Of a stretch of 63,980 nucleotides of DNA, positions 5,458 to 9,509 are shown one piece after another (the first letter of the stretch is position 1; each line of letters starts with the position of its first letter). The position numbers and the translations under genes are program-made. Location of the stretch: NCBI RefSeq assembly GCF_902652685.1, contig NZ_CACRUY010000030.1, positions 1 through 63,980 of the forward strand, given 5' to 3'. Below the pieces are notes generated by a model, which saw only the letters and a list, made by a program, of their open reading frames with translations, did no database searches and was not told the DNA's origin. Source of the DNA: Mycobacterium sp. Marseille-P9652 (GTDB lineage: Bacteria; Actinomycetota; Actinomycetes; Mycobacteriales; Mycobacteriaceae).

Positions 5458-5835
5458 TCACTGATACGGGTTGGGCACCCGTCCCGCGCTCGCCTCGGTC
5501 AGCTCCGGCAGCGTCGCGAACGTCACCGCCGGCAGGCGCAGCTCGCCGCCGTCCTTGAGGCGGGCCCGCGCCCAGTTGCCGCGGTGGAAGCGCAGCCCGT
5601 CGATGTCCTCCCAACGGACCGTGCGGCTCTTGAACAGCGTGCGAACTGTCACGCCCTCGCCGTCGGCCACGGTGCGCAGCCGGACGATCAGCGCCGACAG
5701 CGCGACGGGGATGATCAGCAGCGGCACCGACGCCGGCCACACCAGGACCGGGATCAGCAATCCCAGGGTCAGATAGCCGACGGCGAGGTGCGCCATGGGG
5801 GAAACCTTGATCACGACGGGTGAGGCAGTAACCAC
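5458..5835 (-). CDS. cfp6: PH-domain low-molecular-weight antigen Cfp6
   Basis: 125 residues. Two hydrophobic segments (AVGYLTLGLLIPVLVW and VPLLIIPVALSALIV) are followed by a small bacterial PH-like domain with the typical VRTLFKSRTVRWEDIDGL and LRLPAVTF strands. It corresponds by length, layout and position to M. tuberculosis Cfp6 (Rv3004), found in culture filtrate. Molecular function is unknown. It converges with the DoxX gene with 4 bases between stops and is divergent from the ilv leader region. Confidence 0.85.
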   Translation of the reverse strand: MVTASPVVIKVSPMAHLAVGYLTLGLLIPVLVWPASVPLLIIPVALSALIVRLRTVADGEGVTVRTLFKSRTVRWEDIDGLRFHRGNWARARLKDGGELRLPAVTFATLPELTEASAGRVPNPYQ

Positions 5836-5910
5836 CCACGCATCATCCCACCCGCGCGAACGGGCGGCGGATTTGACGGCTGAGCTGTGCGAAGGCTACC
5901 TTCGGACACT

Positions 5911-5970
5911 ATGGATACCGCCGGAAAGCCCGGGATGCTCGTAGTAATCAGTCGGCGCGTTGGTGCCTGA
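5911..5970 (+). CDS. Leader peptide of the ilv operon
   Basis: A 19-codon ORF from ATG 5911, or 11 codons from the in-frame ATG at 5935 (MLVVISRRVGA), ends in TGA at 5968-5970. It carries the run Leu-Val-Val-Ile and a later Val, which are the products of the downstream enzymes. A -10-like TACCTT at 5897-5902 lies just before ATG 5911, so leaderless initiation is possible. The pattern matches branched-chain leader peptides of actinobacterial ilvB operons. Too short to prove by sequence alone, but codon content, position and the following terminator agree. Confidence 0.75.
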   Translation: MDTAGKPGMLVVISRRVGA

Positions 5971-6046
5971 CTAGCTTCGTCAGCATTCCGCAGCGATCCA
6001 GCACCAACGCGACCCTCGTACAGCAGCCAGCTGACGGGGGTTTTTT
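5956..6046 (+). promoter_or_regulatory. Transcription attenuator upstream of ilvB
   Basis: Three pairings are visible. (a) 5956-5966 pairs perfectly over 11 bp with 6001-6011; its left arm lies inside the leader peptide. (b) Terminator: 6013-6019 plus 6021-6024 pairs with 6030-6040 (one bulged A, one G-U), loop AGCCA, then six T at 6041-6046. (c) Antiterminator: 5975-5984 can pair with 6030-6039 (two G-U), destroying the terminator. A ribosome stalled at the Val-Val-Ile codons would leave 5975-5984 free for (c); one reaching the stop at 5970 would cover it and allow (b). The mechanism is inferred. Confidence 0.75.
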
Positions 6047-6097
6047 CTTGCGTACGAGACTGTCGAACTTAAGACCAAGAGGACAAGAGGACTTCAC

Positions 6098-9509
<3,412 letters not shown>

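What the first reader, a model, noticed from the sequence alone, without database searches (positions are those of the whole stretch)
5911..6046. Leader-peptide attenuator controlling ilvBNC
A short ORF with Leu-Val-Val-Ile codons is followed by three mutually consistent pairings: an 11-bp hairpin over the leader peptide end, an intrinsic terminator with a T6 tail, and a competing antiterminator. Classical T-tailed attenuators are rarely described in mycobacteria. Ribosome stalling on branched-chain codons would raise ilvBNC expression. The pairings are seen directly; the mechanism is inferred by analogy with C. glutamicum and enterobacterial ilv leaders.
Basis: partly seen in the sequence, partly recalled or inferred. 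Interest (0 to 1): 0.7.

Follow-up and report, generated by a model that had tools for sequence, protein, structure and literature searches.

The report
Leader-peptide switch before ilvBNC genes
This stretch looks like a genuine RNA switch that lets a mycobacterium make more branched-chain amino acids when they run short; such a switch is already published for the tuberculosis bacterium, but comparing relatives suggests that the stalled ribosome itself, rather than a rival RNA hairpin, may keep it open.

Summary
The feature is real and of a known kind: predicted upstream of ilvB in Mycobacterium in 2005 (PMC1262725) and shown by experiment in M. tuberculosis in 2026 (PMC13236596). Leader codons, 11-bp helix and T6 terminator are conserved: 195 of 198 sampled genomes of the genus match; the two helices together covary (0/500 shuffles); both Val codons are the rare GTA in 109 of 109 leaders.
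What I add: I found no conserved antiterminator. Geometry is conserved instead: the four-codon block starts 12-20 nt before a helix whose far end abuts the terminator (0-3 nt). Met in 98 of 99 mycobacterial leaders, 29 of 31 mostly from other genera (limit 19) and 61 of 66 in a class-wide sample (limit widened to 20; 56 of 66 at 19), against 3-4% of shuffles. I infer that helix A docks the stalled ribosome against the terminator and blocks it (about 0.35-0.4). A published rival, a helix sharing bases with the terminator, is not excluded.

The parts
5897..5902 (+). -10-like hexamer TACCTT (inferred); +1 would fall near 5909, two nt before the ATG
   Evidence: A hexamer TACC(G/T)T, TAACGT or TAGCGT was found in 103 of 106 leaders and lies exactly 8 nt before the first ATG in 95 of them. 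No transcript data for this species.
5911..5970 (+). leader peptide uORF MDTAGKPGMLVVISRRVGA, stop TGA 5968-5970; likely nearly leaderless
   Evidence: similar uORFs in relatives.
5938..5949 (+). sensor codons CTC GTA GTA ATC (Leu-Val-Val-Ile)
   Evidence: GTA is 1.2% of Val codons in 37 long ORFs of this window, yet both Val codons are GTA in 109 of 109 mycobacterial leaders.
5956..5966 (+). helix A, 5' arm (overlaps codons Arg-Val-Gly-Ala)
   Evidence: the GCGC at its base begins 17 nt after the start of the codon block in 106 of 109 leaders.
6001..6011 (+). helix A, 3' arm; abuts the terminator
   Evidence: gap to the outermost terminator pair 0 nt in the fold of 109 of 109 leaders, 0-2 nt to the terminator core in 99 of 99 distinct ones.
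6012..6046 (+). intrinsic terminator: 6013-6019:6034-6040, 6021-6024:6030-6033, A6012:U6041, T6 tract 6041-6046
6098..7963 (+). ilvB, acetolactate synthase large subunit (GTG start)
   Evidence: NF005860, 1168.7 bits.
7963..8469 (+). ilvN, acetolactate synthase small subunit (start chosen by me inside the listed ORF 7867-8469)
8496..9509 (+). ilvC, ketol-acid reductoisomerase

Best explanation
It is a translation-dependent transcription attenuator of ilvBNC (confidence 0.93; the number below refers to this). Plenty: the ribosome runs through the rare Leu-Val-Val-Ile codons to the stop codon, its footprint covers the 5' arm of helix A, and the terminator folds and ends transcription near 6046. 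Shortage: the ribosome stalls on the sensor codons and RNA polymerase reads through into ilvBNC. How the stalled ribosome defeats the terminator is inferred. My first choice (about 0.35-0.4) is docking: helix A forms directly in front of the stalled ribosome, and because its far end abuts the terminator it brings the ribosome to the foot of the terminator hairpin, which then cannot close its last base pairs. Without translation, helix A and the terminator simply stack side by side and transcription ends. Shown here: elements, conservation, geometry, and that no conserved antiterminator was found. Shown elsewhere: terminated RNA, uORF translation and codon dependence in M. tuberculosis. Inferred: docking, and all function in this species.
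For: Attenuator: 195 of 198 sampled genomes of the genus, 185 of 185 of good quality, hold the leader; a covariance model of it matches 184 of 201 genomes of the family. Covariation of helix A and terminator. Rare GTA GTA in 109 of 109. The upstream PH-domain gene runs the other way, so on this strand the terminator can only act on ilvB. Proven in M. tuberculosis (PMC13236596). Docking: in the stalled state the terminator's 5' arm is held by upstream RNA to 0.11, 0.03 and 0.06 at ribosome edges 13, 16 and 19, against 0.42-0.43 in shuffles, with 0 of 99 leaders above 0.5; six E. coli leaders reach 0.39-0.82, mostly 0.5-0.8. Codon-helix-terminator geometry in 98/99 and 29/31 leaders and 61/66 (56/66 with the limit) against 2.8, 3.3 and 4.4% of shuffles. 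At the stop codon the assumed ribosome edge reaches index 25 or beyond, so over most of the 5' arm, in 140 of 140 leaders and stays at least 7 nt from the terminator; in the class sample it reaches to within 2 nt of the end of the arm in 61 of 61. Ribosomes near a terminator repress it in E. coli (PMC4824070, passages). In C. glutamicum, loss of the leader start codon cut expression by 80% (Morbach 2000 as told in PMC11857589), so helix A alone does not antiterminate; restoring a helix-base pair (G37A+C77T against C77T, same terminator change) raised AHAS activity from 23.4 to 52.0, and A73G, which spares the terminator, raised it from 13.0 to 40.1 (Table 3).
Against: Docking has no direct test. 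G37A alone, which breaks the same pair in C. glutamicum, did not lower expression (AHAS 20.0 against 13.0). In S. coelicolor, sensor-codon changes had no effect (told in PMC1262725). With no ribosome, or one upstream of the sensor codons, an extended helix A could hold about 1.6-1.8 of the first four terminator bases in mycobacteria, so a shared-base antiterminator is possible for stalling at or before the Leu codon. At edge 22 (stall on the fourth codon) part of helix A is covered and 5 of 99 and 2 of 31 leaders do hold the 5' arm above 0.5; in the class sample 2, 1 and 2 of 66 do so at edges 13, 16 and 19. By the E. coli yardstick of about 27 nt for full termination, many leaders bring even the stop-codon ribosome too close: the stop-to-terminator distance is 17 nt or more with a median of 23 nt in mycobacteria (plus 10 nt, my arithmetic), and the edge comes within 7-11 nt in 44 of 109. 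The ribosome edge (A-site first nt + 13) is an assumption. The E. coli controls are not clean: trpL, leuL and ivbL do not clearly exceed their shuffles. Related sequences are not independent.
Confidence: 0.93

Rival explanations
1. Shared-base antiterminator (the published view for C. glutamicum in detail; for M. tuberculosis a terminator and an anti-terminator that exclude each other): helix A, extended at its foot, takes the first bases of the terminator stem; the stalled ribosome merely leaves helix A free to form.
For: Stated as mutually exclusive structures for M. tuberculosis (the figure was not seen) and as a shared GCC trinucleotide for C. glutamicum. In the window G5954-G5955 can take C6013-C6014 across a bulged A (2 nt). 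Without a ribosome the extended helix holds about 1.8 of the first four terminator bases in mycobacteria. Two Corynebacterium-like loci, L253 and L257, were read by eye as sharing bases. A73G and G37A+C77T in C. glutamicum fit it as well as docking.
Against: With a ribosome on the sensor codons the shared bases are mostly covered or free: 0.76, 0.25 and 0.09 of four bases at edges 13, 16 and 19 in mycobacteria; no core base is held in 91 of 109 mycobacterial and 24 of 31 other leaders. G37A in C. glutamicum did not reduce expression. A helix that antiterminates alone should do so without translation, but the start-codon mutant fell by 80%.
Confidence: 0.27
2. Classical attenuator: 11-bp helix as protector (1:2), a separate antiterminator 5975-5984:6030-6039, and the terminator.
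For: All three pairings can be drawn in this window; a loop-to-terminator antiterminator was also drawn for Corynebacterium ulcerans (PMC10272879).
Against: The pairing fares like shuffles across 67 leaders; a 7-nt complement to the terminator's 3' arm occurs in 3 of 99 leaders; the stretch is deleted in many relatives.
Confidence: 0.05
3. Helix A is a pause or protector hairpin, and the stalled ribosome prevents termination through coupling factors or kinetics that leave no second RNA structure.
For: No conserved alternative stem of more than 5 pairs besides helix A and the terminator; ribosome-RNAP coupling lowers termination in vitro (PMC10135430, passages).
Against: Does not explain why helix A abuts the terminator (0-3 nt) and starts 12-20 nt after the start of the codon block while its loop varies from 3 to 48 nt.
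Confidence: 0.2
4. The hairpin is an ordinary terminator without regulatory role.
For: It has the form of a normal intrinsic terminator.
Against: The neighbouring upstream gene is divergent; the uORF with rare codons and the helix are conserved with it; regulation is proven in M. tuberculosis.
Confidence: 0.01

Closest known systems
M. tuberculosis ilvB1NC attenuator (Eckartt et al. 2026, PMC13236596)
   Same: Operon, position, LVVI uORF with UGA stop, terminator with U-tract; [quoted passage not shown]
   Different: They call the two structures mutually exclusive; I find helix A and terminator side by side and no conserved antiterminator. Their figures could not be seen, only text and legends.
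Candidate ilvB leader peptides and terminators of Corynebacterium, Mycobacterium and Streptomyces (Seliverstov et al. 2005, PMC1262725)
   Same: Same element predicted in the same genus; [quoted passage not shown]
   Different: No codon-helix-terminator geometry in the two of three text parts that I read (figures not seen); here followed into 22 of 29 sampled families.
C. glutamicum ilvBNC three-hairpin attenuator (PMC11857589) and ilvB-II motif (PMC10272879)
   Same: Near-leaderless uORF and a codon run about 19 nt before a helix at the terminator's foot (my count from positions given in the paper).
   Different: There helix and terminator share a GCC trinucleotide; model R1 built from mycobacteria and nine other genera matches none of the 15 genomes of genus g3, which I take to be Corynebacterium from genome size only.
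E. coli pyrBI attenuator
   Same: A ribosome close to the polymerase keeps the terminator from folding (PMC10135430, PMC4824070, passages).
   Different: There the ribosome comes close by translating; here it would be brought close by a fold-back helix.
E. coli trp/thr/ilv-type attenuators
   Same: Leader peptide with regulatory codons, terminator.
   Different: They have an antiterminator that holds the terminator's 5' arm (clear for thrL and ilvL, weaker for others); in nearly all actinobacterial leaders tested the arm is free.

Membership tests
Leader-peptide transcription attenuator | Short translated ORF with codons for the pathway's end products | tested here: met
   LVVI codons present and conserved; translation itself shown only in M. 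tuberculosis.
Leader-peptide transcription attenuator | Intrinsic terminator between uORF and operon | tested here: met
   the simple scan did not report it.
Leader-peptide transcription attenuator | Termination responds to charged tRNA supply | not testable with these tools
   No expression data for this species; shown for M. tuberculosis.
Classical trp-type attenuator | Antiterminator hairpin that competes with the terminator when the ribosome stalls | tested here: not met
   No conserved competitor. Of six E. coli controls thrL and ilvL clearly exceed shuffles at most stall codons, hisL in part (3-9 of 60 shuffles as high), leuL (6-12 of 60), trpL (15-16 of 60) and ivbL (17-46 of 60) do not clearly.
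Mycobacterial ilvB1 attenuator | Leader upstream of ilvBNC with LVVI-type codons and U-tract terminator | tested here: met
C. glutamicum shared-base (fast) attenuator | Helix and terminator share base-pairing nucleotides in the stalled state | tested here: inconclusive
   Window shares up to 2 nt; 91 of 109 leaders share none; depends on the ribosome edge.
Any family of Rfam release 15 | Match to a curated covariance model | tested here: not met
   No match above gathering score in the leader; two chance-level hits at E 0.21 and 3.8.

The most novel reading that the evidence does not exclude
Across Actinomycetes the ilvB attenuator works without an antiterminator: a conserved fold-back helix docks the ribosome stalled on branched-chain codons at the foot of the terminator, so the ribosome itself blocks termination. 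That would be a new variant of attenuation, combining stalling (trp type) with steric blockade (pyrBI type).
Probability: 0.35. Interest if true: 0.75.

Novelty: already known. Interest (0 to 1): 0.42.

Why it matters
As found, it is the known ilvB attenuator in one more mycobacterium. This turns an open point (Seliverstov 2005: mode of regulation not clear; Eckartt 2026: molecular details underexplored) into a test by spacing mutants.

Tried and rejected
(26 of 396 genomes of the phylum match model R1, with stricter filters) measures how narrow the model is, not absence.

Literature that led nowhere: (1 and 0 papers). That the docking idea or the class-wide geometry is not in print rests only on searches of the held open-access library.

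Rows left out and choices made: of 110 mycobacterial loci, 106 were found by pattern, 3 added by a looser pattern, and L128 was left out of the counts because its block reads Leu-Val-Val-Thr. 99 of the 109 are distinct. The 31 leaders called other were picked by eye from the 80 named-genome loci; two of them (L005, L006) are mycobacterial by their titles, so 29 are from other genera. For the class sample I fetched 80 upstream regions, chosen by hand for family spread from the capped list of places that one search printed for 197 genomes, none of them from the window's family; 78 had full length; 66 gave a uORF plus terminator and 12 full-length ones did not. The index limit was 19 and I widened it to 20; 5 of the 61 sit at 20. 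The 5 of 66 that fail are L317, L318, L329, L345 and L346; in some of them I think the script chose the wrong codon block. In one search my script found a uORF plus terminator in only 2 of the 15 g3 loci. The label printed for arm coverage says edge at 28, but the code tested index 25; I report 25. In one search five leaders hold the 7-mer CGTCAGC in the loop region, but only three have a 7-nt complement to their own 3' arm.

Full report
What is there. The window is contig C30 of an unnamed Mycobacterium genome of 5.70 Mb (genus inferred from the matches). Between a divergent PH-domain gene (5458-5835, minus strand) and ilvB-ilvN-ilvC lies the leader. It holds a hexamer TACCTT (5897-5902), a 19-codon uORF (5911-5970), the codons CTC GTA GTA ATC, an 11-bp helix (here helix A, 5956-5966:6001-6011) and a terminator ending in T6 (6012-6046). 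The simple scanner found neither promoter nor terminator.

Conservation in the genus. A DNA search with 5880-6060 matched 195 of 198 sampled genomes and 185 of 185 of good quality. The three misses are two genomes of 63% and 72% completeness and one with 7% contamination. A covariance model of the leader matched 184 of 201 genomes of the family; 15 of the 17 misses are one genus, g3. From 110 fetched mycobacterial loci, 109 leaders were compared. The block reads Leu-Val-Val-Ile or Leu-Val-Val-Leu nearly throughout. Both Val codons are GTA in 109 of 109, although GTA makes up 1.2% of Val codons in 37 long ORFs of this window; the fourth codon is mostly ATT (75 of 109), 3.8% of Ile codons here. 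A hexamer TACC(G/T)T, TAACGT or TAGCGT was found in 103 of 106 leaders and stands 8 nt before the first ATG in 95 of them. With a usual -10 spacing (recalled) the RNA would start about 2 nt before the ATG, much as reported for C. glutamicum (one nt, PMC11857589).

Structure. On 67 aligned leaders (58 mycobacterial, 9 from other genera) helix A and the terminator together form standard pairs in 96.3% of cells against 92.7% in shuffles, with 10 pairs changed on both sides (0/500 shuffles). RNAalifold finds the same two helices and nothing else. A 7-nt complement to the terminator's 3' arm in the loop occurs in 3 of 99 leaders, the window and two near relatives, and the stretch is deleted in many species.

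Is there any antiterminator? I folded partial transcripts with a ribosome stalled on each sensor codon and asked how far the terminator's 5' arm is held by RNA upstream. In six E. coli leaders it is held 0.39-0.82, mostly 0.5-0.8. This is clearly above 60 shuffles for thrL and ilvL at all but their last codons, in part for hisL (3-9 shuffles as high), and not clearly for leuL (6-12), trpL (15-16) or ivbL (17-46); the control is useful but not clean. In 99 distinct mycobacterial leaders the value is 0.11, 0.03 and 0.06 at ribosome edges 13, 16 and 19, against 0.42-0.43 in shuffles; in the 31 other leaders 0.08, 0.03 and 0.12 against 0.35-0.38. The window itself gives 0.27, 0.21 and 0.00. At edge 22 (stall on the fourth codon) the means rise to 0.22 and 0.27, still below shuffles, with 5 of 99 and 2 of 31 above 0.5. 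A scan of all column pairs found no conserved alternative stem longer than 5 pairs.

What is conserved instead. The GCGC at the base of helix A begins 17 nt after the start of the four-codon block in 106 of 109 mycobacterial leaders and 24 of 31 others (14 nt in 3 and 5; 20 nt in one, no GCGC in one). In the folds the gap to the outermost terminator pair is 0 nt in 109 of 109 and 0-3 nt in 31 of 31, while the helix loop ranges from 5 to 47 nt. Requiring a longest stack of at least 6 pairs that starts at index 12-19 and ends within 3 nt of the terminator core, 98 of 99 and 29 of 31 pass, against 2.8% and 3.3% of shuffles. To avoid hand-picking by this feature I located ilvB by protein in 197 genomes of the class, fetched 80 upstream regions chosen for family spread and looked for any branched-chain uORF followed by a terminator: 66 regions qualify, 12 full-length and 2 truncated ones do not. 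Of the 66, 61 have the geometry with an upper index limit of 20, and 56 with the earlier limit of 19, against 4.4% of shuffles for the wider limit. They come from 22 of the 29 families sampled; helix starts at index 13-20, gap 0-3, loop 3-48. The terminator's 5' arm is again mostly free in the stalled state (0.14, 0.09 and 0.14; 2, 1 and 2 of 66 above 0.5; shuffles 0.40). The spacing holds even where the leader peptide stops at or just before the helix start (3 of the 61, and L011, L012, L017, L020 and L061), so it is not only a by-product of the coding sequence.

[quoted passage not shown] Its assumed 3' edge reaches index 25 or beyond, over most of the 5' arm of helix A, in 140 of 140 leaders, and stays 7-44 nt (mycobacteria) and 9-37 nt (others) from the terminator. 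In the class sample it reaches to within 2 nt of the end of the arm in 61 of 61 and stays 7-44 nt away.

Literature. Seliverstov et al. 2005 (PMC1262725; [quoted passage not shown] Eckartt et al. 2026 (PMC13236596; abstract, first parts of sections 10 and 11, and passages) show for M. tuberculosis an abundant ~120-nt terminated RNA, footprints on the uORF, induction by an IlvB1 inhibitor, loss of induction with AAAA for LVVI, and relief of the vulnerability by a leader without the terminator; they state mutually exclusive terminator and anti-terminator. For C. glutamicum, PMC11857589 (parts 1, 3 and 4 of 6 and passages) proposes a helix that shares a GCC trinucleotide with the terminator; PMC10272879 (parts 1-3 of 4) draws a loop-to-terminator antiterminator for C. 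ulcerans. PMC4824070 (passages) reports that a terminator near a stop codon is repressed by the ribosome and reaches its maximum beyond about 27-30 nt. PMC4046766 and PMC10135430 were seen in passages only.

Mechanism. If helix A forms in front of the stalled ribosome, the path from the ribosome to the terminator shortens from 41-74 nt of linear RNA in mycobacteria (from the assumed edge) to about 5-14 nt (from the end of the A-site codon to the helix foot, my arithmetic from index 17) plus a gap of 0-3 nt, inside the range in which ribosomes repress terminators in E. coli. At the stop codon the distance from the codon to the terminator is 17 nt or more, median 23 nt in mycobacteria (plus 10 nt, my arithmetic); this is larger but for many leaders still short of the E. 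coli figure of 27 nt, which speaks against a clean OFF state. Hence docking: the ribosome is the antiterminator and helix A its tether. In C. glutamicum, start-codon loss lowering expression by 80%, the effect of restoring a helix-base pair (G37A+C77T against C77T, AHAS 52.0 against 23.4) and A73G (40.1 against 13.0) fit; G37A alone (20.0 against 13.0) does not, and the lack of effect of codon changes in S. coelicolor (told) remains unexplained. The shared-base model remains open: without a ribosome, or with one just before the sensor codons, an extended helix A can hold about 1.6-1.8 of the first four terminator bases in mycobacteria, falling to 0.76, 0.25 and 0.09 at edges 13, 16 and 19; in the folds from index 14 no core base is held in 91 of 109 and 24 of 31 leaders, the window itself sharing two.

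Limits. All states are minimum-free-energy or ensemble folds of naked RNA with an assumed ribosome edge; no co-transcriptional kinetics. The zero gap owes something to the fold program extending stems by A-U pairs; counted to the terminator core it is 0-3 nt. Sequences are related. Families without detection (7 of 29) were not followed up. The 15 genomes of genus g3 without a model match are taken to be Corynebacterium only from size.

Verdict. Known attenuator, correctly spotted; the antiterminator part of the reading fails; the geometry across Actinomycetes is the part worth pursuing.

Noticed in passing
L162, L173 (mycobacterial leaders): Two leaders carry an extra stretch inside the uORF just before the sensor codons, with the GTAGTAAT block and everything downstream intact.
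   Followed up: no
L128 (genome G075, 3.3 Mb, one contig): A small mycobacterial genome whose sensor block reads Leu-Val-Val-Thr (GTA GTG ACT) with stop TAA; helix arms and terminator remain.
   Followed up: partly
mycobacterial leaders with stop codon at index 48-51 (43 of 109): In one group of mycobacteria the leader peptide runs about 7 codons further (such as ...DAALALCRA), so the stop lies inside the helix loop; the stop-codon ribosome edge lies 7-11 nt from the terminator in 44 of 109 leaders.
   Followed up: partly
window 6015-6021 and 6052-6058: The terminator's CTCGTAC is also complementary to GTACGAG just after the T-tract; conservation not checked.
   Followed up: no
genomes of genus g3: None of 15 genomes of 2.0-3.0 Mb matches the model although ilvB is present; in 2 of the 15 loci (L253, L257) a related leader was seen in which helix and terminator appear to share bases.
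   Followed up: partly
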